Shown here piece after piece: positions 39,981 through 60,962 of a stretch of 64,000 nt of DNA. Every line of letters starts with the position of its first letter. Position 1 is the stretch's first letter. This DNA is from Theocolax elegans (Eukaryota > Arthropoda > Insecta > Hymenoptera > Cerocephalidae). The translations under genes were made by a program, and so were the position numbers. The notes under the pieces were generated by a model. It was not told where the DNA came from. It saw nothing but the letters and a program-made list of their open reading frames with translations, and did no database searches. Location: positions 10,941,505 to 11,005,504 of the forward strand of contig CM047427.1 in assembly GCA_026168455.1 (NCBI GenBank), given 5' to 3'.

Positions 39981-40664
39981 ATACTCGCTCAATCTACACA
40001 AAAATTTGCATTAATTTTACAGGGGATTATTAAAACGAGCGTTTTATTACGTTTTTAAATGATGGCTGCAAGCTCGTTGAATCTTTAAGCATTTTTGTTG
40101 TTGTATACGTATTTGAATAAGTTAGATTTTTATTTAAAAGGAAAGTAAAATAATGTAATATTGATGTAGTTTGCGTACATATATCTTCGTTGTATGTGAA
40201 AATATAAATTTTCTTACGGGAATATCAAAGTCAATCAATGATTTAAATTTCCTGCGCGTTTAAAATTATCGATTGAAAAGTACCGTTTTTAAAATAATTC
40301 ATATTTATTACATTAAAATTCAAAGAAATCCTCGAGAACATTGCCTTTTATTACGATGCAGTTTATAATTATGATTTTATAAACCTCTCCACCAATTGCC
40401 TTCAAACTTATATATATTGTGAGGTAAGCCTCACTTTTCATTAAAAATACTTTTAAAGACATAAATGTATGCTGTCACACTCTTGTAAGCCATTTAAACC
40501 TTAAATAGTGAAAATCAGCAATTCTGCTCCGGACTCTGGTAACCTAATACTGTTTAAAAGATGTCTTTTTATAGTCAGAAACTGCCTATAAATTTCCAGA
40601 GTGGGTCTAAATCATTAAGATCACTTATGGTCAAAATATCTGGGAAAAGTGCCCGAAATATTAT

Positions 40665-41685
40665 TAGAAATGTGTATTTGTTGTCTTATAACGATGAATC
40701 TATTAGCATGATCATTGCAAAAAAATGGTAATTATGCTCAAGCAGCAAGAATATACCGTAATCGTTTTCCTAATAGAAGACACCCAAACGATCGTACCAT
40801 TGCGAGACTTGTAGAGCGTCAACGACAACGACCACTTGGTCCGCGAGAAAGACGGAGAAATAATGTACCAGAAAGGGATCATCCACATGTGCTTGCAGTA
40901 TTAGGTTTGGTAGCAATTGGCCCCACATTAGTACTTGAGCAATTGCAAGACAATTAGGTATTCCAAAATCCACGGTGCACCGAATTCTGAGAGTTCACAG
41001 ATTCCATCCTTACCACGTAACATTGACACAACAGTTACTTGCTGAAGACTTTGAACGAAGGTGCCAGTTTTGTGCGTGGGCACAAATGATAATACAAGGA
41101 GATCCAGAATTTTTTAATTACGTCCTATTTAGTTATGAAGCTACTTTTCATAATACTGGTCAACTTAACAGGCACAAATGCCATTACTGATCTGTCGAAA
41201 ATCCACATTGGCTTCAACAAGTGAATCATCAGCAACGTTGGAGTTTGACCGTGTGATGCGGTATTATAAATGGAAACTTAATTGGTCCGTATTTCTTCGA
41301 AAGACATGTAAATCGCCACAACTATTTACGGTTTTTGAGAAATGATTTACCGGTCTTACTTGAAAATGTTGATCTGCACACAAGACAACGCATGTGGTTT
41401 CAACACGATGGTGCACCTGCTCATTTTGCCAGAATAGTTCGTGACTATCTGAACGTCAGATTCACTTATCGATGTATAGAACGTGGTGGATTTGAAGAAT
41501 GGTGTCTGAGATCTCCAGATTTGACCAGCTTGGATTTCTTTTTGTGGGGTTATCTGAAAAATATTGTCTACGCTGAAGTACCCACTACAAGAGAAAATAT
41601 GATGGACGGCATAACAATTGCATGTCGCAACATTCCCAGAATCGCTCTTCTAGCCACCATTAGAAGTTTTCAAAATCGAATTTAG
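40665..41685 (+). pseudogene. Decayed Tc1/mariner-type transposase
   Basis: The frame at about 40715-40925 encodes the N-terminal helix-turn-helix part (NYAQAARIYRNRFPNRRHPN, the DUF4817-type start of insect Tc1/mariner relatives). After one frameshift, a second frame runs from about 40927 to 41685 (ARQLGIPKSTVHRILRV, then HDGAPAHFARIVRDYL, then RSPDLTSLDFFLWGYLKNI). It is broken by three in-frame TGA codons, each where the family normally has Trp. The first catalytic Asp is replaced (LFSYEATFHN has Tyr where Asp is expected), while the second (HDGAPAH) and third catalytic region (SPDLTSLDFF) are recognisable. It cannot make active transposase. Confidence 0.88.
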
Positions 41686-41689
41686 TTAT

Positions 41690-42340
41690 ACCTTGATAAT
41701 AACGGGCAGTTGTTTGAACATCTTATTTGATGAATTTCCTGATCAAAGCGTCTTTAAAATCAGATTAGATAACTTACCCTTAGAAGAACTATCGCCTTGC
41801 CTTAAGTGGCTGGGACAACTATACGCCGATACACACACACACACACAAAGGGATTAAAAACTCGCCACGTCTTCGTCGTTAATCCTGGGTAAGGCTAAGA
41901 GCGAGTGATGGTCGAGATCTTAAAATTCCTAACACATGACCTTGACCTTTGTCCTTGAGGTGACGGTCAAGGATACCGTCAGTTGGCTTTCTTGTAACCC
42001 TACAGCTCTTGCATCTCAATATTTTTATAGGGTTGACTTTTTTCGTAAGGTCTGTACGCGTATACTGTTTTGATCCTGACCATGACCTTGACCATAACCT
42101 TGGCCAAGATCATACTGAACATAAAATTTCCCGCCCGTTCCATTTCCGAGAGCAAAAGTAGTGATTCCTATTTGAAAAAAACATTTTGTCCTTTAAATGA
42201 CCTTAACCCTTGACCTCAGGTTATGGTTAATATCACCGTCAGTTGGCCCCTTAAAAACCCTACAACTTTTGTATAGAAAGTTTTTTTCTATCTCCAATAT
42301 TTTTTGAGATATTCTCATCCGTTATTTAAAATAGGACACC

Positions 42341-42345
<5 letters not shown>
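41690..42345. mobile_element. 3' flank and right end of the mariner-type element
   Basis: Repeated GACCTTGACC/CCGTCAGTTGGC phrases (41941-41984, 42076-42110, 42199-42246) precede a terminal GGACACCCTGTA at 42334-42345, the inverted form of the CAGGGTGTCC end common in arthropod mariner-like elements. No matching left end was found before 40665, so the element appears truncated on the left. Confidence 0.6.

Positions 42346-42372
<27 letters not shown>
42345..42372. repeat. TA microsatellite
   Basis: About 13 TA units directly after the transposon end, probably grown from its TA target duplication. Confidence 0.85.
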
Positions 42373-42375
<3 letters not shown>

Positions 42376-42548
42376 CAGGTGGCCTCAATGATGTCCCCAC
42401 ATCACAGAGCAGATGATAGAAAAGTTGGACACGTATGTCCCTATGGGACAGTAGCGTCCCTATGGTTCCCGTCTATAATCCATCACCAGTCTCGCATAGG
42501 ACAACGGCAGTAGTGTGAGGGTAACCGAGGATTATAAGCGAGGTTCCA

Positions 42549-43040
42549 ATGAGACGCCGGTACCGCATAATACATCCACAACAAGCGAACAAAGCACCAA
42601 TCGAGGTTATTGATTTGACAGACGACCCACCCACGCAACCAATGGTACAACGACACGCACCCATGGAGTTGCCTCTGCCGCTCTTCGCCATAGATGGGGT
42701 ACACAGGCAATAAGAGACAGAAAACCCGACCCGACCATCAACATCAGCACTGCCACCAGAACTAACACCAGCACCAGAGCCAGAACCAGTTCGACCACCG
42801 ATGCAAGTACCCGCACCACAAATAGATAGACCCCGGTACCAGGATCGAACCCAGGAATTGCCGTATGTCTTGCGACAGATCCTGGATGGTCCTATGGTCT
42901 CGGTACCGCTAGGGGTGAAGAAATACGTGGTTTGCTACGAAGGGTTCAAGAGACTCCTACGGTTAAATCCACGCACGGGCGACATACGACATGTCGGCGC
43001 ATTAAAATTGGTAAATCTATACCACACACTTTTGCGTTAA
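42549..43040 (+). pseudogene. Unknown Pro-rich ORF with one in-frame stop
   Basis: From an ATG at 42549 one frame stays open to a stop at 43038-43040 except for a TAA at 42711, about 164 codons. The first part carries IEVIDLTDDPP, which looks like a SUMO-interacting motif. A Pro/Glu/Thr-rich middle (LTPAPEPEPVRPPMQ) follows, then a basic folded-looking end (VPLGVKKYVVCYEGFKRLL). Base composition is far more GC-rich than anything nearby, which suggests a foreign or recently moved origin, though the source is not recognised. It could be a host gene fragment, a transposon accessory gene or a piece of a DNA virus. Confidence 0.35.
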
Positions 43041-43639
43041 TTAAGTATAGATAGTAATTTTGTACTATAAATTTTTTTTTTCTTTTTTTTCTCCGATAAT
43101 AATTGTAAGAGTGAAATATCGAAATTTCACTCTCCGAAGAAAAAGAGGAATGCGACGCGCAATAATTACACGCGTTAATTATTTCTGATAATTATCCAAT
43201 TATTGAATATAATTAATCATTAGACTTAAGATTCGTAGTATAGTAAGATAGCTTCGCAACAGACACGCGTCGTAAATCGCAATTTAAATTCTAAGTGCTC
43301 AAACGCTTGAGGTTTCAATGATCTTAAAGCCTCAGTAATAAACCCTTCTTTTTTTAGCTTTAACTTAGAATTAGCTTTAACTTTTTTCTTTTCCAGATGT
43401 GCCATCTCAGGACACTACATTAGGCGGAGCCTGACAAATCAATTTTTGATAGTGATTTTGAATATGTCTGGTATTTATTGAGTCTATATCTGCCGTAATG
43501 CTATACGTAACGTATTACACATTTCTTTAAAAAATTACACACTTGCTGCCAAAAGTAATATAACAATTACCTTAATTTTAGTCATAGCTATGTATCGTAG
43601 AAATCATTACAGCGAAATGATTACAGCGCCATTCGAAGC
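43041..43639. other. Intergenic DNA, no gene seen
   Basis: AT-rich with a small hairpin (GAGTGAAATATCGAAATTTCACTC at 43110-43133 forms a perfect palindrome around CG). No coding frame. Confidence 0.5.
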
Positions 43640-44930
43640 TTTCAGATCGAGCAGCTATCGACGGAGGCTATAGCTCCGACATCCCCTTAAGAGCTGTTGC
43701 TATCTGATGCCCATACTCCATAACAAATGACACAGCAGATGTAATAACTGGTAATATTCTCATCAAAACCCTTACTATATCAGCCCCTACAACAACCCAG
43801 GACTTTTCATACCACGCTACTAATATGTCTAATAAAACATCAAAAAATAATTGACCAGCCGCAACAGTATCGGTAAAGCTCTGCTTCGCTTTCTTCATTG
43901 CGTGTGTTAAAACTCGTGTAATCTCATTTTTTTTTATTATTATTTTAGCGTCGCTCTTTTTATGCTTCCAAACCGGTGCTAATCAGCGACGGAGGTCATA
44001 CGATATCTTGGTGAAGAAAGCACTTGTTGAAAATACATTCGCCAGTGGTGCTTGTATCAATCGGCCGGGCCGGGAATCGAACCTGGGACCTCCAGATTAC
44101 GAGCCCGACGCCCTACCGACCGAGCCATCGCAGGCCTCTATGTGTAATCTCATTTAATGACAAACTAGTTTGATCTGCAAGATTACCTTGCTTTTCTGCT
44201 GTTGTCTTCACACACCCTACAACTCGATCCGTCTTCTGTTGAAAATTCTCCATATTACGATCTAAATCGCAAGAAGCTACAGCAGCAACTAGACCTACAC
44301 CTACTCCAGGAATACAGGCCATAGCCGTACGTGATACATTTTTCATCGTTACAAATTTACGTAAGAAATCACCTACCGAAGTAGTAGCTTCCTCAACTGA
44401 AAAATCCATTTGTACACGAGGCATATCTTGTTCTGTTAATCGGATTTGCCAAGAGGTATCTATCGTGGAAGGAATATACCCATAAATCCTGTGAATTCAA
44501 AGTCATCCGCTGCGCTCCAAAATATAGTCACCTGTATTTTCTCTAGAGCACAAATAACCAAATGCATTAAAATCTCCTTTATCCCTCCACGAATTATTCC
44601 TCTCAACATCCTCATCATTCATTAAAGTCCATAGATTCTCTATCTCATATGGAACTTCAATGACTGCTGTCGGATTAACTGTTGGAACCACCATTTCAGT
44701 AACAAAATTTTGGGCATATAATGGTTGTAAAACGTTATATTTCGCAGTATGATTACCTAAAATGCGTATTCCAGAATGAGGTATAAGTGACACATAAAAA
44801 GGTTGAGTAGCATTATGGGCACTTATTGTATATTTCATTCCTCCACGCCAACAACGAAAACAAGCCAAGATAGACATAGCTGTCGTTTGCCAAAGTGTCG
44901 ACGCCCATATACTGTGAGTATCTTTGTCAC
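43640..44930 (-). pseudogene. Endogenous picorna-like virus, capsid end and non-structural start
   Basis: Minus-strand ORFs at 44930-44503, 44424-44142 and 43915-43668 are pieces of one viral polyprotein in order. The first is the C-terminal jelly-roll capsid protein (CWRGGMKYTISAH strand motif, then PFYVSLIPHSG). The second begins after the capsid with an FTGFMGIF-type end, then a Gly/Ala hydrophobic segment and Gln/Lys-rich helices. The third has helical, hydrophobic sequence typical of the region before the 2C-like helicase; no helicase motif remains. Frameshifts near 44425-44510 and stops break the frame, and a SINE splits it at 43930-44141. Structural proteins lie 5' of non-structural ones in one frame, as in iflavirus-like genomes. 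The family name is inferred. The other part of the virus lies at 49006-50606 beyond a hAT insertion. Confidence 0.75.
43930..44141 (-). mobile_element. Full-length tRNA-derived SINE with 14-bp TSD
   Basis: Read on the minus strand it starts with a tRNA-like head (A box TGGCTCGGTCGGTAGGGCG, B box GGTTCGATTCCC), continues through an unrelated body and ends in an AATAATAATAAAAAAAAA tail. GTGTAATCTCATTT is duplicated at 43916-43929 and 44142-44155, marking LINE-mediated insertion. It lies inside the viral copy, so it came later. Other copies in the window: 754, 31285, 32910 and 60808. Confidence 0.93.
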
Positions 44931-45241
44931 CTGGTGTGGCCAGGTTCGGCTATTTGTAGCCAAAATGGCGATTTCATACTTATGTTGGCGACATGATTTT
45001 CAATTTTGGCGAGGGCGATTTTTTTGGCTTTATTACTTATTCCATGGCTATTTTAGGCTATTTTATAGGAAACATCTGTAGATTTTTTTAACCATAAACT
45101 CATAGAAAAAGTATACGAATTATCAGCAAATTTATATATTATAGGTAATACAAAAGGTAGAATAAGTGCAGTTTACTTTACAATGGCTAAGCCCGAGGGG
45201 CACAATTTTTAAACTAATTTTTACTTAAGGTATTTAGATAC

Positions 45242-45310
45242 AGTTTGTGGTCATGTGGTTAAGGTCTAGACTTGATACTCAAAAGATCGGAGTTCGATCC
45301 CGGTTCTCGG
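45242..45310 (+). repeat. tRNA-like sequence inside the hAT element
   Basis: TGGTCATGTGGTTAAGG resembles an A box and GGAGTTCGATCCC a B box, followed by a TTTTTTTTTT run. The acceptor stem does not pair, so it is not a normal tRNA gene. Possibly a SINE head or a Pol III promoter relic. Confidence 0.5.
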
Positions 45311-46237
45311 ATTTTTTTTTTTAAGTATTTTATTTTTTAAATACAGATTTATTCAACGTTGTCAAATAAAATAATGAACTTAAATGTTTTAAATATTATT
45401 TAAGAAATTAAATAGTAATAGAATAAACAAAATTCTTCAATGAAATAATTAAAATTATAATTTATGTAACTTATTAAGCTAATACTATCAAGATTTTAAA
45501 TTTTATTATTATGTTATTAAAATTATTGTTTAACAATTTTTTACTAAAAACTAATTGTTATTGTTAAAATTAAAAAAATTGAATTTACATTTTAGAGTTA
45601 AGCAAAAATTTAGGTGATCTTACTTCACTCAGCTAAGAATAAAGTTTTCTATCATAATAAAGGAATTTTTAATAAAACCTTTTCTTATTTAAATTGTTAA
45701 TACATATCATAAACAATGTTATGTTAAACAGTTATTATTTTTACAATTTTTATTAATGTAAACATCTTGTAGCTATACAAAAAATATCTAATTTTGGATA
45801 GTTTTAAATTAAAAAATTGACATGCTTCATAAGTAATACATAATTTCAAATTCAAATACGACCGTCTATTGTGTAGTCTTCTTTAATCGGTGCGCACTGT
45901 AAATATTTCTTTCAAACGTTGTAATAATTCGCGCACCTCTCGCGAAGCGCTTGTAGCGCTACTGTCGAAACTTCTGTAAACACGATCTCACACTCATATC
46001 CTCTTACATTAATTTCGAAGAACCAATCCCTGCGCAGAGCTAGTTCCAACACATGTTAGCGTTAATACACACGTATAGCAAGTTTATACACGTACATACA
46101 AATACATTCTCTTCCTCCTTTCAATTGTAACGGTACGACTACAATCTTTTACTGTGTGAACATCCAGAATAATACGTCTTGTGTGTGTTTGCGTAGCGGC
46201 AAAATACAAAATTTGTAAGTGTATAATGTGAAACAAA

Positions 46238-48550
46238 ATGGCAAGTAAACCAACAGTGAAATCTACTACTAAATCGAAAGAAATTAGATTATATAAATTC
46301 AATGCTGCTTGGGAAAATGAGACATGGGCAAAAGGTAAAATAATAAGAGCAGTTTTTTGAAATTATAAATTAAAAAAAATAATATTGTAAAATTATGCCG
46401 TAATTTATAAACGTTCAATATATATATTTTTCTTTCACGACGATAACTTTTTTTAATGCAGGATGGCTAGTCAAAAATGGAGATACACATAATGTAAATA
46501 AATAAGCGTTTTGTCAAGTGTGTCGTAAACCTTTGCGAGCTCACCCTACAGATTTAAAAGCTCATAGCACGAGAGATTCACACATCCAGCAGTTTGAAAG
46601 TTTAAGTGTTAAGAGTCAACCAAAAATAACTTCAATTTGCAAAACACAAACGGATAAAAAGAAAGAAAACCACGAAAGAGATTTGAAATTAGCAGTGTAC
46701 ATTGCAACGCATTCAAGCATAAGGAGTGTAGATCATCTTACTGAAATTTTGAAAGTCTTAAGTCTACAAGATCTCAAATTGCACAAGACTAAATGTGGAA
46801 ATTTGATAAAATATGTGATAGCACCAAATATGCTAAAAGAGTTAATAGACGACGTTGGTGATTGCCCTTACTCACTGATTATTGATGAGTCGACTGATGT
46901 TTCAACGATGAAGTTTCTGTGTCTTTGCATAAAATATTTTAGTCACAAACAAAATAAAGTAATTACTAATTATTTAGGTTTAATCGAAGTGGTGAAAACA
47001 GATGCTGATACATTGTGCAGTGCGATTATTAAGTACTCTGCAGAAATAAATTTAAATTTGAAAAATTTAATTGCCTTAGGGACAGATGGAGGAAGCAACC
47101 TCTGTGGGAAAAATCATTCAGTTTATACACTGCTAAGAGAACAATTTAATGCTAATTTACAATTGGTTCGATGCATCTGTCATTCACTGAACAATGCAGC
47201 TTCAGCTGCTGCAAACCACTTTCCAGCAAATATTGAATTTTTATGCAGGGAAATTTATAACTGGTTCAATCACAGTGCAATAAGAAAGTCAGAGTACATG
47301 ACAACTTGGGAAACAATAAATGCTGATGCTGAAAGTGATGATGAACTTAAGGATGATGAGATTTTAAAAGCTTCTACAGGTAATGAAAAAAACAGAAAAA
47401 AGAAAAAGCAAAAAATGTTAAAATTTGTACAGTTATCAGCAACCAGGTGGTTGGCAAGGTACAATGTTGTAAAAATTATTTTACTTCATTATATACCTCT
47501 AAAAACTCATTTTGATTTGGTAGTTAATACGGAGAAAGATTTTACGGCAAGGATGATAGCTGACATGCTAAAGGATCATAGTAATTACTTGTATTTATTA
47601 ATTATAAAACCGATATTAGGAGAAATCAATTATGTGAACGCATCTTTTCAAAGTACGTTCGTCGATTTAGGAGCCGCACACGACGATTTGAAAGATCTGT
47701 TGTTATTGCTAGCTAGGAAGATCATGAAATCAGGGTTTTTGAGCGAAGGTTTGGACTTAATGTTAAAAAATTTAGATAACGAATTAGCTTACTTACCAGT
47801 CGAAAAAGCCGACTTTGGTATAGAGTATAAAAATGCATTATTTAATTGCAATATTTCAAAAGATATTCAATTGAATATTGAAACGAGAGCATTTAAGTTT
47901 ATAAAAACTTTGTGTGTTGAGTTATCAAAAAGACTACCGGTCAATTTAACTTTGACCATAAATTAAAATTTTTATCTCCTTCTGTTTGTTTATCTCAAAC
48001 CTTACGACCCCGGTTTTCTGATTTACCGTTTTCAACTTACTTTTTGCCATCTAGTAAATTAGGCACTCTTGAAAACCAATGGAATAAATTATTAACAGTA
48101 GATTGGGTATTCCAGTTTGGCGATGATGCTATTAAAAATAGTAACACATTTTGGCCGATTGTGTATTCATTTAAAAATGCAGGTGGAAAGATAGTATTTA
48201 AGGAGCTTGCGACTTACGCTCTTACGCTTTTGTCATTCCCCTCCAGTAATGCAGTCGTAGAACGCGTGTTTTCAATTATGAATCAAGTAAAAACCAAAAT
48301 CCGCAATCACATGTTGCTTCCAATGTTAGATTCAATTTTGAGAATCCGAATGCAATTTTACGCGGATAACATGTGTTGTAAAACTTTTAAACCATCATCT
48401 GCCATGCTTGGAGATTTCAATTACAAAGTTCTTTATCCACAAATGGATAAAGAAAATAATGAAAAAAGTGACAATTTAATAGAGGAAGAGTTTGAAGTTT
48501 ATAGTTTATTAAACGCTTTTGATACGTGCATTAGTATACCGGAGTTGTAA
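46238..48550 (+). pseudogene. hAT transposase, nearly intact
   Basis: Exon 1 (46238-46334, MASKPTVKSTTKSKEIRLYK...) joins in phase through a GT-AG intron to 46462. The protein then has a BED-type zinc-finger remnant (FCQVCRKPLRAHPTDLKAH), the RNase-H-like catalytic parts LIIDESTDVS and LGTDGGSNLCGK, an acidic/Lys-rich insertion, and the C-terminal dimerisation region with the catalytic Glu (FPSSNAVVERVFSIMNQVKT). Two defects are seen: a TAA at 46503-46505 just before the zinc finger, and a frameshift near 47945-47966 that moves the last third (48044-48550) to another frame. With catalytic residues kept and only two lesions, decay is recent. The related family includes ZNF862/DUF4371-type transposases. 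Confidence 0.9.
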
Positions 48551-49005
48551 AAACAATATAATTATATTTAAATACATGAACGTATATTTTATATTACCAA
48601 TAAATAAATTAATTATTTTCACCACATTGTTTAATTATATTTTATAATCAGATGCAAAACTGCCTGTTTAATTTTACATCTTTAATTACATTTTATAATC
48701 AGATGCAATAATTTCAACTAATGTTAAATATAATTTATCAGTTTTGTAATTTAACAATAAAAAAATTACTTTTCATATTTTTCTATTTTTTAAATAATTC
48801 CTGTTTTCATCCTTTTTAATTCACTAAAATATATGCAGGGTGTCTAGATTTAAATATATGCAATTATGCTGATAACATTTTATTTGCTCATACTCAAGTC
48901 CGGATGCGGGGATTAATGAATTTTCAGTGAAGAATAGGATTAATTATTTCGTTTTCGCGCTCTGGCGATTTCTGGCGATTTTTGTCCGGTAGGTGGCGAC
49001 ACCAC

Positions 49006-50606
49006 GTTTGCCCATACTGGCCTTTAGTGCACATTCCCATTTGGGGTGGCATCGAAGGCACAAAGAATCCATCATTATCATCTAATAATAAATCTGATCT
49101 ATTTATAATAGATAAAACCTCCTGATGATCCACTAGTAAATAAGATCTACATAACAAACGCTTAAAATCTAATTGAGGATCATTGTGAATTACCCTAAAA
49201 GAAGACTTCCCTACATTAAAATTATCTGTATCATCAGGATTTTCTTTATCCATATGTACAGCAATTAGCTTTAGACCATCACTTCCTGTCAATATTGTAG
49301 GCTTAATGGGTCCTTTCTTTTTATCAGCTGAACCAGATGATGAAGCATCACTATCAGACTTCGTTTCTACTTTTGTGGTATCTACTAACTTCTTTGGTTT
49401 CTCTCGCTTAATAGCGATAGATTCATTCCAAGACGTTAATGGATTAATATACTTAGATAACGGTAATTAAAAAGATTTTGCTTCTTCTCCCTTACCTTTC
49501 TTCGCACTAAGAACACCTTCAGGAAAACTATGTTCAGGAACCCAAGTATAACTATCCTTGGGAAAATTATCCATCACATTATTTATTACAATCTGTCTTT
49601 GAAAGCCTTTTAAACCTTTCGAGTTAAAATCCTCATCTGCTCTCATATAAACGAGGACTTCTATTTTCTGAGCTGCAATTTCACAGGCCTTATTTCATTC
49701 ATAAAAGTTATATTAAACCTTGTATGTATATCCATCCCTATACTATAAGTTCTATGCTTTTGAAAATCTGTATACACACTACCAGTCCGACCAAACTTTC
49801 CTGAGGATCTACGCATAACCGTGTCATATATATACATGGGACACGAAACGATACACTCTTCTGTTCTCCTAAGTGAAAAACTATAACATACGTTGAGTTA
49901 ATTTCTGTAACTTTCTTCGTAGTTCGTGCAAATTCAGCAGACAACATTAATGCTTCCGTATGGAACAGATTACTTACAAAATCTAATCTTATTTCTATAG
50001 CTCCGCTCCAAAAAGCATAATTTGCGCAAGCATATTTTAAAGGTATACATTCACCGTTACTATCTCTCTTATTTTCCCGTAAAGTCCGGTCAACAATAAA
50101 ACTAAATATTCGAGTACCTTCTCCATGGTTTGTATTCCATTTAAATACTCTATGGAGCCCCCAAATTCGCGCCATATTAAAATAACTCTTTGATTCCTCT
50201 GTAACTGAACTTACTTCCTTACTTACACTCGATGTTGAATCTAACTTTAGAAACTGTGAATCATTATTTCTTACACCCGAACTAAAATTCCAGCGTGGAC
50301 GCGGTATTACCACAGAATTCTGATTGTCCATCTGTACTTTCGCTAAATACGACATACCAGTAAATTCAGCATGTAAGATTCTATAAAATGTCCTACTGCC
50401 TACAGTAGACGTTCCATCGATACCCGTATTAAGGGACTAAGAACTTGAACGTACACCCTATAATATTTAGACGGCCGAACAGCATCATTGGAATTTTCAT
50501 TCTTTACTAATCTAAGCCAAGGCCTATGATATCACTCAACAATACTGGAGAGGACGGGCGAAGTCCATTTACCAGTGACGTCCCAATATCTCAAGTATTG
50601 CTGAGC
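49006..50606 (-). pseudogene. Endogenous picorna-like virus, capsid region
   Basis: Minus-strand ORFs 50355-49738 and 49292-49006, with shorter open pieces at about 50606-50527 and 50525-50400, are consecutive parts of a capsid polyprotein. Recognisable jelly-roll features include PRPRWNFSSG, FWSGAIEIRLDFVSN-LFH and a VLVYMRADEDF strand, followed by a Ser/Lys-rich inter-domain stretch at about 49310-49420. Damage includes an in-frame TAA at 49467-49469 and frameshifts near 49700, 50380 and 50525. The right limit is sharp at about 50606, where foldback repeat sequence begins. The left limit at about 49006 is the hAT element, after which the virus resumes at 44930. The start of the polyprotein and the polymerase are absent from the window. 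Confidence 0.8.
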
Positions 50607-51439
50607 TATGTAAAATAATAACTCATATATATACATGCATTGTATACAAATTTTAATAATAATTTTTATAATTTTAATGTTTCTATATAATACTATTTTT
50701 GTGAAAATAGTCATTTATGCAGTCGATCATCGCATTGACAGTAAGGCGGACTGTATTAATACCAGCCACTTTAAAAACTTCACAGGATGAGTGTTTGAAA
50801 AAAGACCAAGACAAGCTAAGTCAAAATAAAAAATTTGATTGATTGTAGTATAAAATTAAAAAAAAACGAAAAATAAGAAAGAAAGGAAAAGAAAATTTAT
50901 TGTATTTCGCCCTGAGTATGCCTGGTGGGCTCATCAGTAGAGTCCAGGCATCTCGTCTCTAGATACAGATGAATGATATAATACAAAAATTTTGAAAAAC
51001 AGCTCTATTCCGTCGAGGAAGACATGGAATATATATGCCCCACCGATAGCAAACATTAGTAAGTGCCACATATTACCAGGTAGCCCCTTAACGCATTTAC
51101 ATAGAATTAATGTCTTAAACGTCAGAATATTGCCATATAAAGCATTTTGTGATCTAATGCCATTTAATTTTAAAATTTGAATTTTTTCAACTATTGGAAC
51201 ATTCGTGAATCTATTGCTTGTTCACACTATAAGTTATATGATAAATGAATTTATTGATCTCCACAAGCCAAAGACTATTCCTCACAACTCAGTAAGGCGG
51301 ACTGTATTAATACCAGCCACGTTAAAAACCTCACAGGATGAGTGTCAGACTTAATATATTTTATTTTAAAAGTATGGGGTAAATCAACCAGACTTTCTCC
51401 CACACATTTTACTAGACTTTATAATGATTTTTAAAAGGA

Positions 51440-51950
51440 GAATTCAACCAGACTTTCTCCCAGACTTCTCCCTCATCGAATCTTCGTCGCACTGTATCTT
51501 CAAAACATAAAATTTATATTGTATCTAATTCATAGAAACAATACATCTTCGACATGTTTTGAGCTATCGAACGCACAAAACCACTAGATACTTATCTATC
51601 ACATATGAAAAAAGTCACCAATGTTTTTCGTGTATCTCGCGACAACAAACTGGTGAAATGGTTAGGGTACAAAACGATATGAAAACCAACTTCAATTTGA
51701 TGATTGTGTTTTTATAATTGTAACCTAACCATTTCATCAGTTTGTTGTCGCGAGATACACGAAAAACATCAATAACTTTTTTCATATGTGATAGATAAGT
51801 ATCTGGTGGTTTTGTGAGTTCGATAGCTCAAAACATGTCGAGGATGTATTGTTTCTATTGATTAGATACAATATAAATTTTATATTTGGCAGATGCAGTG
51901 CGACGAAGATTCGACGAGGGAGAAGTCTGGGAGAAAGTCTGGTTGAATTC
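51440..51950. repeat. Palindromic unit 1
   Basis: GAATTCAACCAGACTTTCTC to its inverse ending GTCTGGTTGAATTC, with arms of about 230 bp (CATCGAATCTTCGTCGCACT facing GTGCGACGAAGATTCGACG) around a ~60-bp loop. Confidence 0.93.
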
Positions 51951-52230
51951 TCCCAGACTTTTAAAAATAATATATAAGTCTAGTAAAATGTGCGGGAGAA
52001 AGTCTGGTTAATTTTCCAATTTTTAAAATAATTTGTTTACCTGTGTGGTTAAAGTGGCTTATTAATCTCCGACTTTTGAAATAAATTTTGGCTGTGGCAA
52101 TAAATTCATATATCATCAGCTAGATTGTAATTTTGTAACTTTTTCTATACGGTTCCCAACATTATTTCCGTAGGAACAATTCTTACAAAATCAATTTTTT
52201 CTATTCAATTCTTCCTGATCTTTCGCATAT

Positions 52231-52443
52231 ATCTTCCAAACATAAAATTTATATTGTATCTAATTCATAGAAACAATACATCTTCGACATGTTTTGAGCT
52301 ATCGAACGCACAAAACCACTAGATACTTATCTATCACATATGAAAAAAGTCACCAATGTTTTTCGTGTATCTCGCGACAACAAACTGGTGAAATGGTTAG
52401 GGTACAAAACGATATGAAAACCAACTTCAATTTGATGATTGTG
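52231..52443. repeat. Left arm only of the palindromic unit
   Basis: From TCTTCCAAACATAAAATTTA to GATGATTGTG the left arm and part of the loop are present. The sequence then switches at TATGTAAAATAA to the second copy of the tandem duplication. This marks the duplication breakpoint, with a short shared TATGTAAAATAA at the junction. Confidence 0.9.
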
Positions 52444-53274
52444 TATGTAAAATAATAACTCATATATATACATGCATTGTATACAAATTTTAATAATAAT
52501 TTTTATAATTTTAATGTTTCTATATAATACTATTTTTGTGAAAATAGTCATTTATGCAGTCGATCATCGCATTGACAGTAAGGCGGACTGTATTAATACC
52601 AGCCACTTTAAAAACTTCACAGGATGAGTGTTTGAAAAAAGACCAAGACAAGCTAAGTCAAAATAAAAAATTTGATTGATTGTAGTATAAAATTAAAAAA
52701 AAACGGAAAATAAGAAAGAAAGGAAAAGAAAATTTATTGTATTTCGCCCTGAGTATGCCTGGTGGGCTCATCAGTAGAGTCCAGGCATCTCGTCTCTAGA
52801 TACAGATGAATGATATAATACAAAAATTTTGAAAAACAGCTCTATTCCGTCGAGGAAGACATGGAATATATATGCCCCACCGATAGCAAACATTAGTAAG
52901 TGCCACATATTACCAGGTAGCCCCTTAACGCATTTACATAGAATTAATGTCTTAAACGTCAGAATATTGCCATATAAAGCATTTTGTGATCTAATGCCAT
53001 TTAATTTTAAAATTTGAATTTTTTCAACTATTGGAACATTCGTGAATCTATTGCTTGTTCACACTATAAGTTATATGATAAATGAATTATTGATCTCCAC
53101 AAGCCAAAGACTATTCCTCACAACTCAGTAAGGCGGACTGTATTAATACCAGCCACGTTAAAACCTCACAGGATGAGTGTCAGACTTAATATATTTTATT
53201 TTAAAAGTATGGGGTAAATCAACCAGACTTTCTCCCACACATTTTACTAGACTTTATAATGATTTTTAAAAGGA
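52444..53274. repeat. Second copy of the duplicated filler
   Basis: Matches 50606-51439 with isolated differences such as ACGGAAAATAAG against ACGAAAAATAAG and two missing bases near 53090 and 53160. Confidence 0.9.
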
Positions 53275-54002
53275 GAATTCAACCAGACTTTCTCCCAGAC
53301 TTCTCCCTCATCGAATCTTCGTCGCACTGTATCTTCCAAACATAAAATTTATATTGTATCTAATTCATAGAAACAATACATCTTCGACATGTTTTGAGCT
53401 ATCGAACGCACAAAACCACTAGATACTTATCTATCACATATGAAAAAAGTCACCAATGTTTTTCGTGTATCTCGCGACAACAAACTGGTGAAATGGTTAG
53501 GGTACAAAACGATATGAAAACCAACTTCAATTTGATGATTGTGTTTTTATAATTGTAACCTAACCATTTCATCAGTTTGTTGTCGCGAGATACACGAAAA
53601 ACATCAATAACTTTTTTCATATGTGATAGATAAGTATCTGGTGGTTTTGTGAGTTCGATAGCTCAAAACATGTCGAGGATGTATTGTTTCTATTGATTAG
53701 ATACAATATAAATTTTATATTTGGCAGATGCAGTGCGACGAAGATTCGACGAGGGAGAAGTCTGGGAGAAAGTCTGGTTGAATTCTCCTTTTAAAAATCA
53801 TTATAAAGTCTAGTAAAATGTGTGGGAGAAAGTATGGCTTATTTATCCCAGACTTTTAAAATAAAATATATTAAGTCTGACACTCATCCTGTGAGGTTTT
53901 TAACGTGGCTGGTATTAATACAGTCCGCCTTACTGAGTTGTGAGGAATAGTCTTTGGCTTGTGGAGATCAATAAATTCATTTATCATATAACTTATAGTG
54001 TG
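53060..54002. mobile_element. 943-bp foldback with perfect-looking outer ends
   Basis: CACACTATAAGTTATATGAT at 53060 faces ATCATATAACTTATAGTGTG ending at 54002. Pairing continues inward through GTAAGGCGGACTGTATTAAT and the CTTTCTCCCACAC sub-repeats to palindromic unit 2. This is the clearest complete foldback in the cluster. Confidence 0.88.
53275..53785. repeat. Palindromic unit 2
   Basis: GAATTC to GAATTC, nearly identical to unit 1, at the centre of the 943-bp foldback. Confidence 0.93.
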
Positions 54003-54107
54003 TAATTTCTGTAACTTTCTTCGTAGTTCGTGCAAATTCAGCAGACACATTAATGCTTCCGTATGGAACAGATTACTTACAAAATCTAATCTTATTTCTA
54101 TAGCTCC
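54003..54107 (-). pseudogene. 105-bp captured fragment of the viral capsid copy
   Basis: From TAATTTCTGTAACTTTCTTC to TTCTATAGCTCC it matches 49899-50004 of the neighbouring viral copy in the same orientation, differing by one missing base (CAGACACATT against CAGACAACATT). It lies exactly between the end of the 943-bp foldback and the start of palindromic unit 3. Confidence 0.95.
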
Positions 54108-54596
54108 AGACTTCTGCCTCATCGAATCTTCGTCGCACTGTATCTTCCAAACATAAAATTTATATTGTATCTAATTCATAGAAACAATACATCTTCGACA
54201 TGTTTTGAGCTATCGAACGCACAAAACCACTAGATACTTATCTATCACATATGAAAAAAGTCACCAATGTTTTTCGTGTATCTCGCGACAACAAACTGGT
54301 GAAATGGTTAGGGTACAAAACGATATGAAAACCAACTTCAATTTGATGATTGTGTTTTTATAATTGTAACCTAACCATTTCATCAGTTTGTTGTCGCGAG
54401 ATACACGAAAAACATCAATAACTTTTTTCATATGTGATAGATAAGTATCTGGTGGTTTTGTGAGTTCGATAGCTCAAAACATGTCGAGGATGTATTGTTT
54501 CTATTGATTAGATACAATATAAATTTTATATTTGGCAGATGCAGTGCGACGAAGATTCGACGAGGGAGAAGTCTGGGAGAAAGTCTGGTTGAATTC
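54108..54596. repeat. Palindromic unit 3
   Basis: Starts AGACTTCTGCCTCATCG (one substitution against the other units) and ends GTCTGGTTGAATTC. Its left flank is the captured viral fragment. Confidence 0.93.
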
Positions 54597-55074
54597 TCCC
54601 AGACTTTTAAAAATAATTATAAAGTCTAGTAAAATGTGCGGGAGAAAGTCTGGTTAAATTCTTCCAGATTTTAAAAATAATTATAAAGTCTAGTAAACTG
54701 TGTGGGAGAAAGTATGGCTTATTTATCCCAGACTTTTAAAATAAAATATATTAAGTATGGCAAAAAGTAAGGGATAGTCTCATCAGCTAGACTTTGCCAA
54801 GACTTTATAAGCCTGACTTTTCCTAGACGTTCCCAGGACTTTTTTTACACGGGTCGCTACATCAATTCCCCCTCATATTTGAATCTTGCAATTTTTTTTT
54901 CAATTTAAAAATGGTTTCAATTTACTAAATATTATTTAATACAAAGCATAATATAATTCACGGATACATATCTTTTAATCGTCCGTAAATTACGATAAAA
55001 CCAAGAAATATGTATCTGTAATAATTTTGTAGTCAAATTTACTAAACGGAATAAAGTATGAACAAAGTAAAAGT
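54597..55074. repeat. Cluster arm, copy A
   Basis: TCCCAGACTTTTAAAAATAA through TTTTTTTACACGGGTCGCTA to GAACAAAGTAAAAGTAA; repeated almost base for base at 56234-56715. Confidence 0.93.
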
Positions 55075-55728
55075 AATGATTTTTAAAAGGAGAATTCAAC
55101 CAGACTTTCTCCCACACATTTTACTAGACTTTATAATGATTTTTAAAAGGAGAATTCAACCAGACTTTCTCCCACACATTTTACTAGACTTTATAATGAT
55201 TTTTAAAAGGAGAATTCAACCAGACTTTCTCCCACACATTTTACTAGACTTTATAATGATTTTTAAAAGGAGAATTCAACCAGACTTTCTCCCACACATT
55301 TTACTAGACTTTATAATGATTTTTAAAAGGAGAATTCAACCAGACTTTCTCCCACACATTTTACTAGACTTTATAATGATTTTTAAAAGGAGAATTCAAC
55401 CAGACTTTCTCCCACACATTTTACTAGACTTTATAATGATTTTTAAAAGGAGAATTCAACCAGACTTTCTCCCACACATTTTACTAGACTTTATAATGAT
55501 TTTTAAAAGGAGAATTCAACCAGACTTTCTCCCACACATTTTACTAGACTTTATAATGATTTTTAAAAGGAGAATTCAACCAGACTTTCTCCCACACATT
55601 TTACTAGACTTTATAATGATTTTTAAAAGGAGAATTCAACCAGACTTTCTCCCACACATTTTACTAGACTTTATAATGATTTTTAAAAGGAGAATTCAAC
55701 CAGACTTTCTCCCACACATTTTACTAGA
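55075..55728. repeat. 60-bp tandem array, 11 copies
   Basis: A 60-bp unit (ATTTTTAAAAGGAGAATTCA, then ACCAGACTTTCTCCCACACA, then TTTTACTAGACTTTATAATG) is repeated without a visible difference, the last copy cut at TTTTACTAGA. The unit also occurs once at about 51424 and 53263. Because 60 is a multiple of three it makes a 271-codon open frame that is not a gene. Perfect identity points to very recent expansion or to an assembly effect. Confidence 0.97.
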
Positions 55729-56233
55729 ATTAACCAGACTTTCTCCCAGACTTCTCCCTCATCGAATCTTCGTCGCACTGTATCTTCAAAACATAAAATT
55801 TATATTGTATCTAATTCATAGAAACAATACATCTTCGACATGTTTTGAGCTATCGAACGCACAAAACCACTAGATACTTATCTATCACATATGAAAAAAG
55901 TCACCAATGTTTTTCGTGTATCTCGCGACAACAAACTGGTGAAATGGTTAGGGTACAAACGATATGAAACCAACTTCCAATTTGATGATTGTGTTTTTAT
56001 AATTGTAACCTAACCATTTCATCAGTTTGTTGTCGCGAGATACACGAAAACATCAATAACTTTTTTCATATGTGATAGATAAGTATCTGGTGGTTTTGTG
56101 AGTTCGATAGCTCAAACATGTCGAGGATGTATTGTTTCTATTGATTAGATACAATATAAATTTTATATTTGGCAGATGCAGTGCGACGAAGATTCGACGA
56201 GGGAGAAGTCTGGGAGAAAGTCTGGTTGAATTC
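55729..56233. repeat. Palindromic unit 4
   Basis: Same unit again, but with several lost bases in A runs (GGTACAAACG, ATGAAACCAAC, GAAAACATC, CTCAAACATG) compared with units 1-3. Confidence 0.93.
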
Positions 56234-56715
56234 TCCCAGACTTTTAAAAATAATTATAAAGTCTAGTAAAATGTGCGGGAGAAAGTCTGGTTAAATTCTT
56301 CCAGATTTTAAAAATAATTATAAAGTCTAGTAAACTGTGTGGGAGAAAGTATGGCTTATTTATCCCAGACTTTTAAAATAAAATATATTAAGTATGGCAA
56401 AAAGTAAGGGATAGTCTCATCAGCTAGACTTTGCCAAGACTTTATAAGCCTGACTTTTCCTAGACGTTCCCAGGACTTTTTTTACACGGGTCGCTACATC
56501 AATTCCCCCTCATATTTGAATCTTGCAATTTTTTTTTCAATTTAAAAATGGTTTCAATTTACTAAATATTATTTAATACAAAGCATAATATAATTCACGG
56601 ATACATATCTTTTAATCGTCCGTAAATTACGATAAAACCAAGAAATATGTATCTGTAATAATTTTGTAGTCAAATTTACTAAACGGAATAAAGTATGAAC
56701 AAAGTAAAAGTAATT
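56234..56715. repeat. Cluster arm, copy B
   Basis: Near-identical to 54597-55074, ending GTAAAAGTAATTATTTTT where copy A continues into the 60-bp array. Confidence 0.93.
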
Positions 56716-57289
56716 ATTTTTCAAAATTGAATTAATAAATAGTCTCATTGCCTAGTAGAAATCAAATTCCAGTCAGTAAGTATTAAACAAAATAAATGTT
56801 ATTTATTTTAGTAATATTGAAATTTATTTTTGTTATTTCATCTATTTTGTAGTTCATACTTGTAAAGATTAGGTTTGAATCCAAATTATAAAATGGTCAA
56901 GATAAAAATATCATAAGAAACCCTCAAATATTGCAACTATACGATACAAATCAGTTGTAAATAAATTGAACAACTGAAAAAGCAACCTAAATTCAGAATG
57001 AATTTATGAGTTTACGTCGTCCGAAATAAGTTTTAAGGTTACGTTCATTAACAAGGTATGTACCGTCTCCTTCATCGTAATTAGCCTTCAAAGTTTATTT
57101 ATTTCTATTTTCATACATTGTAAATTAATAAGGTAAATCGTTCTTTCCCGTTAAAATGCTCACGAATAAACATAACCGACAACCAACAGAAAATAAAAAA
57201 AGAAATTAAATTTTGTTAGAACCTAAAACAATCAACGAGTTAATACCTCAACCCAATAAATAATTAACAAGATCGAAAGATATCGATTC
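56716..57289. other. AT-rich region, no gene seen
   Basis: Unique-looking DNA after the foldback cluster; no coding frame. Confidence 0.5.
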
Positions 57290-57900
57290 AGTAGCATTAA
57301 CCTTTTAAACGCGACTATATATATGTATATACATTTTTTGTTTTATGCTAACTGTGAGTGCAGACACGTTTCCCCTTCGGGCGTGAGACGAAGAGATCGT
57401 GTGGCGTAAAAGTGGGAAGCATTTTCTCTCTTTCTCTCTCTATGGTTGCTGAGGAGAACTGCTTTTAGGAGCGCACTTTTCGCATCTCATCTCCCTACAC
57501 TTTTTTTGTTCCTCGTTCACGCCTTACTCTGCGTATATACATACCTTCGTCTCACCATTTCCCTCGCAATTCTATAGCTGTATATATATATCTATATGTA
57601 TCTGTTATTTTCTTTGTCTTTTGCTTGAGAGAGAGAGAGAGAAACCGTTGGAAAAATTGGGATTCTCTGACGCTTGTGTCTTTTCACCCTGGGGATAAGG
57701 AAGTTTCGCCGGTGAAACTCGGAAAAAAGCCGCTTGGCAATCGGGAGATTTTAGGGTGGATTGCCGTGTGCTCTTCTTTTATTTTACACGATTTTTTTAC
57801 ACACACACACATACACATAGAAAGTGTGAGAGAGAGAAAGAGAAATAAGGGATAAAGCTCGAATAAAACAAGTGACGAAATTCGCATTGCGGAATCATTA
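57290..57900. promoter_or_regulatory. GC-richer island with GA/CT tracts
   Basis: CCCCTTCGGGCGTGAGACG, TCTCTCTTTCTCTCTCTATG, GAGAGAGAGAGAGA (about 57627) and TCTGACGCTTGTGTCTTTTC close together in AT-rich surroundings. The overlapping 76- and 85-codon ORFs are low-complexity. Promoter-like; no gene attached. Confidence 0.35.
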
Positions 57901-58694
57901 TGGGTTCGTAAACTTCTTACCAGTTTATCCTTTGATATCAAATTATTTTTTTTATTTATTGATTTATAGTCTCATTTATTGAATTTAAGACATGTAATGA
58001 TGAGAGATTAGATGCGATTGAAAGCTTTGTATAAACATTCTATTACAACAAATCGTAGATTATTTTCACATTCATTTTTGTCAGCAGAACTCCAACTTTT
58101 TACACTTATGAAATCAGTACAGTTAGAAAATCACATATTCTATTATCTTTATCTAAAGACTATTAGTTTATTATAAAAACCGTTTTGATTTAAAAAATTA
58201 TAATTTTAATTTTTACCAAAAGCACAAAATTATAAAATTAATCTTTTGAGTAACTTTTTACATATTTCAAAATTTGATAAATTATGATTTAATTTTTTTT
58301 ATTAATAGTATAATAAAAATACTACATTATTACACTTTACATAGAATAAAATATTTATTTTACGCAACCGAAAGGTATAGGAAAACGGTTCAATCATTTT
58401 ACTTCCAAATTCTAGAGTGAAGTCAATCAAATATTAAATTTTCTCGCGTTTCCAATTTTTCAATTTTTTTGCTATTCTAGACGTATATTGCTGTGCTGGT
58501 GATTTTTGCTATAAAATTATTTTCCTCGAAAATCTGGTATTTATCAATTGTTTTTTTTCAATTATTAGAATAATAATATTGGTGTCAAAATATTTATTCT
58601 TTTACTAACAAGGAGAACATCATATGTTTGGGAAACGGATTGTGTCCAGCTTGCAAGATATGTTTTCTAGTACAAAAATATGTAGAAAGCCAGA
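57901..58694. other. AT-rich region, no gene seen
   Basis: No credible coding frame or repeat. Confidence 0.5.
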
Positions 58695-59194
58695 GCCGCA
58701 GACCCTATAACAATCGTTTTTTTCAAAATTTATACGCTGTTAAAGCAGAATTTACAAAAGAAGGCTTTACTTTAAATGCTTGTAACTTCTACAGTGTCAA
58801 ATATTAATAGTTAAACCAAAGTTTAATCAAAAGTTGAGATAAAATGAATATAATTAAAAAAATAGTACGCTCAAATCCGTTAGAATGGAGCAGAGTTATA
58901 GCCGAAATAAGAATTAGAAGAAATTTAGCTTAAAAAATCAATAAAATTTGTAGCATCCAATTTTTGTTAAAAGATTTTAAATTCTTAATTTGATTATAAC
59001 TTTGCTCCATTTCATCGGATTTAAACGTCTTCTTTTTAAATTATATCTATTTTATCTCAGCTTTTCATTAAACTTTGGTTTGAATGTCAATATTTGATAG
59101 ATTAGAAGTAACAAGCGTTTGAAATAAAGTCTCTATTTTTTGGAAATTTTAATAGCGTATTACTTTTGAAAAAACGATTGTTAGGGTCTGCGGC
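58695..59194. mobile_element. 500-bp foldback element
   Basis: GCCGCAGACCCTATAACAAT and CGTTTTTTTCAAAA at the left face TTTTGAAAAAACGATTGTTA and GGGTCTGCGGC at the right. Inner arms pair too (GTTAAACCAAAGTTTAATC facing ATTAAACTTTGGTTTGAA; AATGGAGCAGAGTTATA facing TATAACTTTGCTCCATTT). No ORF. Confidence 0.88.
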
Positions 59195-59635
59195 TACAAA
59201 CTGGGCACGATCCTTTTTCCAAACATATGAGGGTCTCCTTGGATATGATCTAAAATTACCAATAAATTCATTATTTATGGCCAAACCATGGTCTTCTCTA
59301 ATTTCAAAATGATCATTTTCTACTACAGGCTCGTTCTCGATTACAATAATGTTTCCACGACATCTTCTTCATCTGCACCCTGATTTCATTAAATAAAACG
59401 CTTGCTTTCGTTCAGCGTACAATCCTTCTTTAAAAACTTGTGCAAACGTGTAATCTCAAGGAAAGTAACAAACAAACAAACAGAGACGGTATTAATATTG
59501 TAATACCTTTTATCCAAATAAGGTTTTACAAAAGCTCTCAAGAAAATGTAAATATCCCTGATAGAAAGTTAAATGGGTATTACCATAATTTCGTCAAATG
59601 GACTCTTCGTAAACAAGATTACCTTAATTAAGATA
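59195..59635. other. Intergenic DNA, no gene seen
   Basis: Moderate base composition; short ORFs without family resemblance. Confidence 0.45.
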
Positions 59636-60500
59636 TCTCCTGTACCTCTCGTTTTAACCCCAACGTACGATGTATATATATATACGAGATCGACTCGCTG
59701 AACAACAAAGAAAACGATCGAGCAAACCAAAAATAAATCGGGTGATCAGCAAAGATCTCTCTTTCTCTTTCTCCCTCAAAGAAAAAAGGTCGAGCTAGTG
59801 TATGTATACGTATATACATACATCGATTCGAAAAAAAAAAGGAAAGACAGAGTCGTATACGAGAAAAAGGAGGGGTTGGTGGAAGAAAGCACTTAAAGAA
59901 TTATCCGAACTCAAAAAGGAGGGTAAGGGGTGTGTCACGTGCGAGTTTTCCCAGGCCGACACCTAATACCTACTAATACCGTACCGTGTATCTATCTACC
60001 CTTTTACCACTCGACGCTAGTTGGAAAGAGTAAGTAGGGTCGTGTTGTTCTCTCTCTTGCTTTCTCACTCTCTCTCTCTCTTTATCTCACTCTATACTAC
60101 GAGTTGAGTTTACGGTATAGCATACTACTCGTAGTAGTGGGATACACTGAGGGAATAAGATTTTTTTCGCAGCTGCGACTGGAAAATACCGAGAGATGGA
60201 TGTTTAAAGAGACCAGAGAGAGGAAATTGAGAGTCAACTGGGCGCGATCGAATTGTGTATAGAGGTACAACAGACTATACTGTTGGCTTTTCTTTTCGTA
60301 TTCTATGTATATATACACACTCGGGGATTTTATCAAACTACGATCGTCGTGTATGTGTGTGGTAACCTTTTCTGTTTCCTTTTTTTTTCTTGTTTGTCAC
60401 TGACAAGATACATCCACGAAGTATACCTATACGACCTTGGGATACGGTGTTTTTCTTCATTTCTTTCGATCCCCACATGGAGAGACAAGTTGAATAAAAA
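59636..60500. promoter_or_regulatory. GC-richer promoter-like island
   Basis: Includes GATCGACTCGCTGAAC, GGGTAAGGGGTGTGTCACGTG, CCCAGGCCGACACC, CGACGCTAGTTGG, a CTCTCTCTCTCTC tract at about 60068-60080 and CAGCTGCGACTGG. CpG-rich against its neighbours. ORFs here are not convincing. It could be a promoter or first exon for a gene outside the window. Confidence 0.35.
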
Positions 60501-60807: not shown

Positions 60808-60962
60808 TTTTTTGTGCTCCCAACATGATGCTAAACAGTGACGTCTTTGTAAAGAAAGCACATTGTTGAAAACACACATTTACCCAGCGGTGCTCGTATC
60901 AATGGTCCGGGATCGGGAATCGAACCTGGGACCTCCACATTACGAGCTCGACGTACCAACCA
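60808..60962 (-). repeat. tRNA-derived SINE, partial copy
   Basis: GTGCTCGTATCAATGG, then GGGAATCGAACCTGGGACCT and ATTACGAGCTCGACG match the head and body of the SINE at 43930-44141 on the minus strand. The A-box end is lost. The B box is intact. Confidence 0.85.

What the first reader, a model, noticed from the sequence alone, without database searches (positions are those of the whole stretch)
43640..50606. Endogenous picorna-like RNA virus copy split by a hAT transposon and a SINE
The sequence shows ordered, minus-strand, frame-broken pieces of a capsid polyprotein and the start of a non-structural region on both sides of a hAT element, with a SINE (14-bp duplication) inside the left part. 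A (+)RNA virus with no DNA stage must have been copied by a host reverse transcriptase. Nesting gives a relative order: virus first, then SINE and hAT insertions. Such long, non-retroviral RNA virus copies of the order Picornavirales are uncommon in insect genomes.
Basis: partly seen in the sequence, partly recalled or inferred. Interest (0 to 1): 0.88.

Follow-up and report, generated by a model that had tools for sequence, protein, structure and literature searches.

The report
Broken iflavirus coat-gene fossil in wasp DNA
The DNA of an insect, likely a wasp, carries a broken copy of the coat-protein genes of a virus related to bee iflaviruses; it was likely made by a host reverse transcriptase and later received two jumping elements, a kind of virus fossil described as rare in arthropods.

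Summary
On the minus strand, in viral gene order, lie remnants of VP2 (weak match), VP3 (E 3e-37), the N-terminal part of VP1 (0.009) and the rest of VP1 (5e-27), matching solved iflavirus capsids, then an unmatched stretch that would be the start of the non-structural region. The three viral-like stretches sum to 2,636 bp. VP1 is interrupted at 44930-49006 by a hAT-like transposon whose ends lie where the VP1 match stops and resumes. A tRNA-like SINE with a perfect 14-bp target duplication sits at 43930-44141. Stops and frame changes break the reading frame. The window's mitochondrial ribosomal protein L2 points to a hymenopteran. Iflaviridae fits better than "picorna-like". Caveats: the part after VP1 has no credible match; no viral 3' end or poly(A) is seen; the right flank (50607-56733) is a repeat tangle with an apparently unpolished stretch (52040-52230) and a second 106-bp piece of the same VP3 (54003-54107), so the right edge is unsafe. 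The own genome could not be searched. Fossils of this order are described as rare in arthropods (PMC12548735), though known (PMC6955108): a new member of a known kind.

The parts
50344..50606 (-). VP2 C-terminal remnant
   Evidence: Residues 2-31 of ORF 49738-50436 align weakly (E 0.18-0.24, no stretch significant alone) to the C-terminal end of iflavirus VP2 chains 6eh1_B, 6egx_B, 5lsf_B; ORF 50535-50714 has no viral match. Partly inferred from position.
49819..50322 (-). VP3 capsid domain
   Evidence: phmmer vs PDB, 5lsf_C 7-177, E 3e-37; 5g52_C and 5l7q_C (deformed wing virus) E about 1e-7
49248..49818 (-). presumed rest of VP3 and linker to VP1, frame broken
   Evidence: Inferred from position; pieces 49470-49694 and 49664-49897 have no viral match; stop codon at 49467-49469 in the VP1 frame
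49005..49247 (-). VP1 N-terminal part
   Evidence: 5lsf_A 6-76, E 0.009
44930..49006 (+). hAT-like DNA transposon inside VP1
   Evidence: Ends lie where the VP1 match stops (49005) and resumes (44931); inverted ends score 24, reached by 3 of 2000 shuffles, in windows chosen after seeing the alignment; flanking 8-mers agree at 5 of 8 at the best of the offsets tried, weak
46506..47966 (+). hAT-like transposase ORF, first part
   Evidence: PF14291 (DUF4371) E 7.8e-8, above cut-off
47921..48550 (+). hAT-like transposase ORF, C-terminal part
   Evidence: PF05699 Dimer_Tnp_hAT E 0.0011, 19.2 bits vs cut-off 21.4
44554..44931 (-). VP1 main part
   Evidence: 6eh1_A E 5.3e-27; 5lsf_A 72-198 E 7.6e-27; CRPV_capsid E 0.0063, below cut-off
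44478..44573 (-). VP1 C-terminal end in a shifted frame
   Evidence: 6egx_A 181-212, E 0.83, collinear with the preceding match; weak alone
44156..44477 (-). stretch following VP1, presumed start of the non-structural region
   Evidence: Open and same strand, but no credible match (Pfam; PDB best E 0.42); inferred
43930..44141 (-). tRNA-related SINE
   Evidence: Related copies at 31289-31456, 32913-33016 and 60844-60953 of this window; tRNA covariance match at 44070-44127, 26.6 bits, cut-off 29
43916..43929 (.). SINE target-site duplication, left
   Evidence: 14 of 14 identical to 44142-44155
44142..44155 (.). SINE target-site duplication, right
   Evidence: 14 of 14 identical to 43916-43929
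43668..43915 (-). last open stretch on the virus's 3' side
   Evidence: Open to a stop at 43668-43670; no Pfam match, not tested against PDB; inferred to be viral from continuity across the SINE
54003..54107 (-). second copy of a 106-bp VP3 piece (49899-50004)
   Evidence: 99% identical, one missing base
52127..52204 (-). deletion-riddled copy of the same VP3 piece, likely an unpolished read
   Evidence: Alignment score 79 to 49899-50004 vs maximum 43 in 500 shuffles; the whole stretch, about 52040-52230 vs 53888-54137: 62 deleted bases, 12 mismatches, 0 insertions in 250 columns

Best explanation
This is a broken DNA copy of the capsid genes of an iflavirus-like RNA virus in an insect genome, likely of a wasp; it was likely made by a host reverse transcriptase, and a SINE and a hAT-like transposon inserted into it afterwards. 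Shown: homology to iflavirus VP3 and VP1 in iflavirus order, frame breaks, the SINE duplication, and the hAT-like element lying between the two VP1 halves. Inferred: an internal stretch of viral RNA was copied by the enzyme of a host retroelement and joined to the chromosome in a germ cell without using the viral 3' end; the copy then drifted as non-coding DNA. No present function is proposed; if transcribed antisense it could supply piRNAs, which is untested.
For: VP3 E 3e-37 and VP1 5e-27 against solved iflavirus capsids, with deformed wing virus VP3 next. Order VP2(weak)-VP3-VP1 agrees with the ICTV order VP2-VP4-VP3-VP1, capsid first in the polyprotein (PMC5657024, passages). VP1 chain position 76 at about 49005 and 72 at about 44931 meet at the hAT ends. 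SINE target duplication 14/14, with related SINE copies at three other places of the window. A host gene in the same window is closest to hymenopteran proteins by identity.
Against: The stretch after VP1 has no credible match. The hAT target duplication is only 5/8 alike. No target-site duplication was sought or seen for the viral insertion itself, and no poly(A) marks its 3' side: of the A/T runs of 8 or more in 42900-51000, the nearest on the left lie at 43072-43090, about 580 bp outside, and the one at 43927 belongs to the SINE; so the copying enzyme cannot be named. A nearby stretch looks unpolished, so single frame breaks could in part be assembly errors. Pfam finds no capsid family above its cut-off. 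Structure prediction did not help: both models had low confidence (mean pLDDT 50.2 and 31.9), and searches with the first, the only one searched, listed no iflavirus capsid.
Confidence: 0.93

Rival explanations
1. The viral sequence is contaminating viral cDNA or a chimeric misassembly, not a chromosomal insertion.
For: A stretch 1.4 kb from the viral edge looks like an unpolished read (about 52040-52230; 62 deleted bases, 0 insertions in 250 columns), and a VP3 piece recurs at 54003-54107.
Against: A SINE with a perfect target duplication and a hAT-like element lie inside the viral sequence, which free viral RNA would not carry; the frame is broken at several separate places.
Confidence: 0.03
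2. The source was a dicistrovirus or another Picornavirales family, not an iflavirus.
For: Pfam's only capsid hint is CRPV_capsid (E 0.0063, below cut-off), named after a dicistrovirus (recalled); the replicase, on which the family is normally decided, is missing.
Against: The 4 PDB sequences matching VP3 at E 1e-5 or better are two forms of one iflavirus VP3 (5lsf_C, 6eh1_C; virus name recalled) and two of deformed wing virus VP3 (5g52_C, 5l7q_C); other picornavirus-type VP3 chains follow at E 0.015 or weaker.
Confidence: 0.06
3. The viral DNA arose together with the neighbouring ribozyme-bearing repeat: a reverse transcriptase switched between that element's RNA and viral RNA, giving a chimeric insertion.
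For: The repeat begins at 50607, where recognisable viral context ends, and again at 52444 in another context; it holds a hammerhead-like motif at 50899-50969 (E 0.0008, 32.8 bits, below cut-off 48.5).
Against: The repeat could simply have inserted into or been joined to a longer viral copy; the assembly there is doubtful; the lone-strand fold does not form the hammerhead.
Confidence: 0.1

Closest known systems
Sacbrood virus type iflavirus capsid (PDB 5lsf, 6egx, 6eh1; virus name recalled, not printed by the tool)
   Same: VP3 and VP1 match collinearly; only 7 residues lie between the weak VP2-end match and the VP3 match, leaving no room for a VP4 between them
   Different: Here a broken chromosomal DNA copy of part of the genome, divergent from the solved virus
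Non-retroviral endogenous viral elements of insects
   Same: RNA-virus sequence in host DNA, frame broken, amid transposons
   Different: Arthropod ones are said to come particularly from Mononegavirales, Martellivirales and Durnavirales and rarely from Picornavirales (PMC12548735, passages). Picorna-Calici copies are nevertheless among the 13 clades listed for arthropods, though none was found in basal hexapods (PMC6955108, section 12). A survey of ant genomes has no occurrence of 'iflavir' or 'picorna' in its main text (PMC6540820)
Deformed wing virus capsid (PDB 5mv6 group)
   Same: VP3 match E about 1e-7
   Different: Weaker than the best match by about 96 bits (131.5 vs 35)

Membership tests
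Endogenous element derived from Iflaviridae | Capsid proteins homologous to iflavirus capsids | tested here: met
   VP3 E 3e-37, VP1 E 5e-27
Endogenous element derived from Iflaviridae | Capsid order VP2-VP4-VP3-VP1 | tested here: inconclusive
   VP2 (E about 0.2)-VP3-VP1 in order; VP4 not seen; order from PMC5657024
Endogenous element derived from Iflaviridae | Helicase, protease and polymerase after the capsid genes in the same frame | tested here: inconclusive
   Following stretch unmatched; 53 of 53 minus-strand flank ORFs of 45 aa or more (40000-43700 and 50500-60000) gave no replicase family at E 0.1
Non-retroviral endogenous viral element | Joined to host DNA in the chromosome | tested here: met
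   Mobile elements nested inside, host gene mRpL2 in the same window; not checked in independent reads
hAT transposon (interrupting element) | hAT transposase domains | tested here: inconclusive
   PF14291 (DUF4371; its link to hAT is recalled) above cut-off; PF05699 Dimer_Tnp_hAT E 0.0011, below cut-off
hAT transposon (interrupting element) | Inverted ends and 8-bp target duplication | tested here: inconclusive
   Ends: 3 of 2000 shuffles reach the score; duplication 5/8 at best
SINE (interrupting element) | Target-site duplication and dispersed copies | tested here: met
   Duplication 14/14; related copies at 31289, 32913 and 60844
SINE (interrupting element) | tRNA-derived promoter | tested here: inconclusive
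   tRNA model 26.6 bits, cut-off 29, E 0.059

The most novel reading that the evidence does not exclude
A self-cleaving-ribozyme retroelement captured iflavirus RNA: the viral cDNA and the hammerhead-bearing repeat that starts at the very base where the virus ends (50607) are one chimeric reverse-transcription product, which would give a direct record of how a cytoplasmic RNA virus was written into an insect chromosome.
Probability: 0.08. Interest if true: 0.75.

Novelty: new member of a known kind. Interest (0 to 1): 0.45.

Why it matters
Iflaviruses infect many insects, yet fossils of their order are described as rare in arthropod DNA. A capsid-only fossil would be missed by polymerase-based screens, and its nested SINE and hAT would let the infection be placed in time once the same locus is read in related species. 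It would show that the ancestors of this insect, likely a parasitoid wasp, met a virus of this group.

Tried and rejected

Literature: 10 paper searches. The six on endogenous elements with iflavirus-type terms listed 19 of 19, 7 of 7, 20 of 77, 25 of 42, 15 of 34 and 15 of 15 papers; no listed title is about an iflavirus copy in an insect genome. Most listed papers were not opened and the rest were seen in passages or single sections, so nothing is claimed as absent from print.

Full report
Observation. Minus-strand ORFs in 43640-50606 were searched piece by piece against solved structures. ORF 49738-50436 matches iflavirus VP3 (5lsf_C, residues 39-206 of the ORF, E 3e-37), with 5g52_C and 5l7q_C next (E about 1e-7) and a weak, collinear match of residues 2-31 to the C-terminal end of VP2 (E 0.18-0.24). 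That PDB 5MV6, grouped with 5l7q, is deformed wing virus is stated in PMC7775750 (passages); that 5g52 is deformed wing virus and that 5lsf, 6egx and 6eh1 are sacbrood virus is recalled. ORF 48924-49466 matches VP1 residues 6-76 (E 0.009). ORF 44503-44949 matches VP1 72-198 of the same chain (E 7.6e-27; best row 6eh1_A 5.3e-27). A shifted frame at 44478-44573 continues the VP1 match (6egx_A 181-212, E 0.83; weak alone, but collinear). The longest ORF on either side of the hAT exceeds all of 500 base shuffles (232 aa vs at most 135; 141 vs at most 134). Pfam is much less telling: of 9 minus-strand pieces, one gave CRPV_capsid at E 0.0063, below cut-off, one an unrelated hit at E 0.11, and 7 gave nothing.

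Family. The order VP2-VP3-VP1, capsid first, agrees with the ICTV description VP2-VP4-VP3-VP1 in the N-terminal part of one polyprotein (PMC5657024, passages). Only 7 residues separate the VP2 and VP3 matches in the ORF, while the solved VP2 chain goes on for 4 residues and the VP3 match starts at its residue 7, so no VP4 fits between them; a review says no VP4 residues could be resolved in the sacbrood virion, although it gives the genome order as VP2, VP4, VP3, VP1 (PMC9505205, passages). The VP2 match is too weak to lean on. What follows VP1 (44156-44477 and 43668-43915) has no Pfam match; its first part has no credible PDB match, its second was not tested there. It is called non-structural only by position.

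Interruptions. The SINE at 43930-44141 has an exact 14-bp target duplication and relatives at 31289-31456 (81%), 32913-33016 (88%) and 60844-60953 (85%); a tRNA model matches at 44070-44127 on the minus strand, just below cut-off. The hAT-like element at 44930-49006 encodes DUF4371 and, below cut-off, hAT dimerisation sequence in two overlapping ORFs. Its inverted ends score 24, reached by 3 of 2000 shuffles, in windows chosen after the alignment; its 8-bp flanks agree at 5 of 8 positions at the best of 49 offset pairs tried. The stronger argument is independent: the VP1 match stops at about 49005 with chain position 76 and resumes at about 44931 with position 72. So the virus came first and the SINE and hAT later; the order between SINE and hAT is not settled.

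Decay. Viral matches lie in different frames, and in-frame stop codons were confirmed, for example at 49467-49469 between VP3 and VP1 sequence. The viral-like stretches sum to 262 + 774 + 1600 = 2,636 bp, one copy of the SINE duplication counted, against 8,600-8,900 nt for sacbrood virus (PMC9505205) and 9-11 kb for the family (PMC10747428). Scanning 53 of 53 minus-strand flank ORFs of 45 aa or more (40000-43700 and 50500-60000) against Pfam found no viral replicase family at E 0.1; the plus strand and the rest of the window were not scanned this way.

Host. The window's mitochondrial ribosomal protein L2 (9773-10489) has 667 relatives at E 0.001 or better, of which 120 are listed. The top row by E-value is a butterfly (Papilio machaon, 61% identity, longer protein). 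The next named rows are wasps: Trichomalopsis sarcophagae (79%), Ceratosolen solmsi marchali (76%), Trichogramma pretiosum (76%) and Copidosoma floridanum (75%). Other hymenopterans reach similar identity over a shorter part (Odynerus spinipes 79% over 82%, the ant Cardiocondyla obscurior 78% over 86%). A hymenopteran fits best, likely a chalcid wasp (group name recalled); the species is not identified.

Right flank. From 50607 to 56733 lies a tangle of near-identical direct and inverted repeats. The stretch of about 52040-52230 aligns to 53888-54137 with 62 deleted bases, 12 mismatches and no insertions in 250 columns, which looks like an unpolished long read rather than evolution. Inside the tangle, 54003-54107 repeats VP3 sequence 49899-50004 at 99%. 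The right edge at 50606 is therefore provisional. The repeat that starts there also holds a hammerhead-like motif with two complementary 8-mers; the lone-strand minimum-energy fold pairs those instead of forming the hammerhead.

Mechanism. An RNA virus without DNA stage can enter a chromosome only through reverse transcription by another element's enzyme (established knowledge of non-retroviral endogenous elements). Here the recognised capsid ends are internal to the viral genome and no poly(A) run of 8 or more marks the 3' side (nearest outside T-runs at 43072-43090), so priming at the viral tail is not supported; internal priming or template switching followed by end joining is inferred. No function is shown.

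Literature. PMC12548735 (passages) states that arthropod and plant endogenous elements are rarely derived from Picornavirales and found eight eukaryotic Picornavirales polymerase sequences; it gives 1,222 putative eukaryotic-DNA polymerase sequences in all, 274 from arthropods. PMC6955108 (section 12) lists Picorna-Calici among 13 virus clades with copies in arthropod genomes, citing earlier work, but found none in basal hexapods: the kind is known. The ant-genome survey PMC6540820 has no occurrence of 'iflavir' or 'picorna' in its main text. In wheat aphids four new iflaviruses were found as RNA, while the passage seen on the 90 genome-borne elements lists Partitiviridae, Chuviridae, Nyamiviridae, Rhabdoviridae, Metaviridae and Orthototiviridae before it is cut off (PMC11978097, passages). 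[quoted passage not shown] two in the pink bollworm are from mononegaviruses (PMC8232680, section 13). Tick iflaviruses were considered as possible endogenous elements; the one tested by PCR was found in RNA only (PMC8195936, passages).

Verdict. Real, correctly read by the first stage, refined to Iflaviridae; a new member of a known kind with moderate interest.

Noticed in passing
50899-50969 and 52736-52806 (minus strand): Hammerhead-ribozyme-like motif (type III model, 32.8 bits, E 0.0008, below cut-off 48.5) with two complementary 8-mers, in a unit flanked by 56-bp direct repeats (50739-50794, 51290-51345); perhaps a retrozyme- or Penelope-like element (family names from the listing and recall). 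The lone-strand fold does not form the hammerhead.
   Followed up: partly
52040-52230: Stretch with 62 deleted bases and no insertions relative to 53888-54137: apparently unpolished long-read sequence left in the assembly.
   Followed up: partly
54003-54107: 99% copy of the VP3 piece 49899-50004 placed between repeats; a duplication or an assembly artefact.
   Followed up: partly
55074-55728: 60-bp tandem array of 10.9 copies, 100% matches, related at 97.6% to sequence at 51381-51465 near the neighbouring foldback repeat.
   Followed up: no
42473-43040: Stretch with long ORFs on both strands and no Pfam match, next to the virus's left flank; the 2-kb bin around it has the highest GC of the window (0.399).
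   Followed up: no
45240-45316: A tRNA-like stretch followed by a T-run inside the hAT-like element, seen by eye; possibly a second SINE nested in it.
   Followed up: no
41257-41685: ORF resembling a mariner-type transposase by eye (recalled resemblance); Pfam gave no such match.
   Followed up: no
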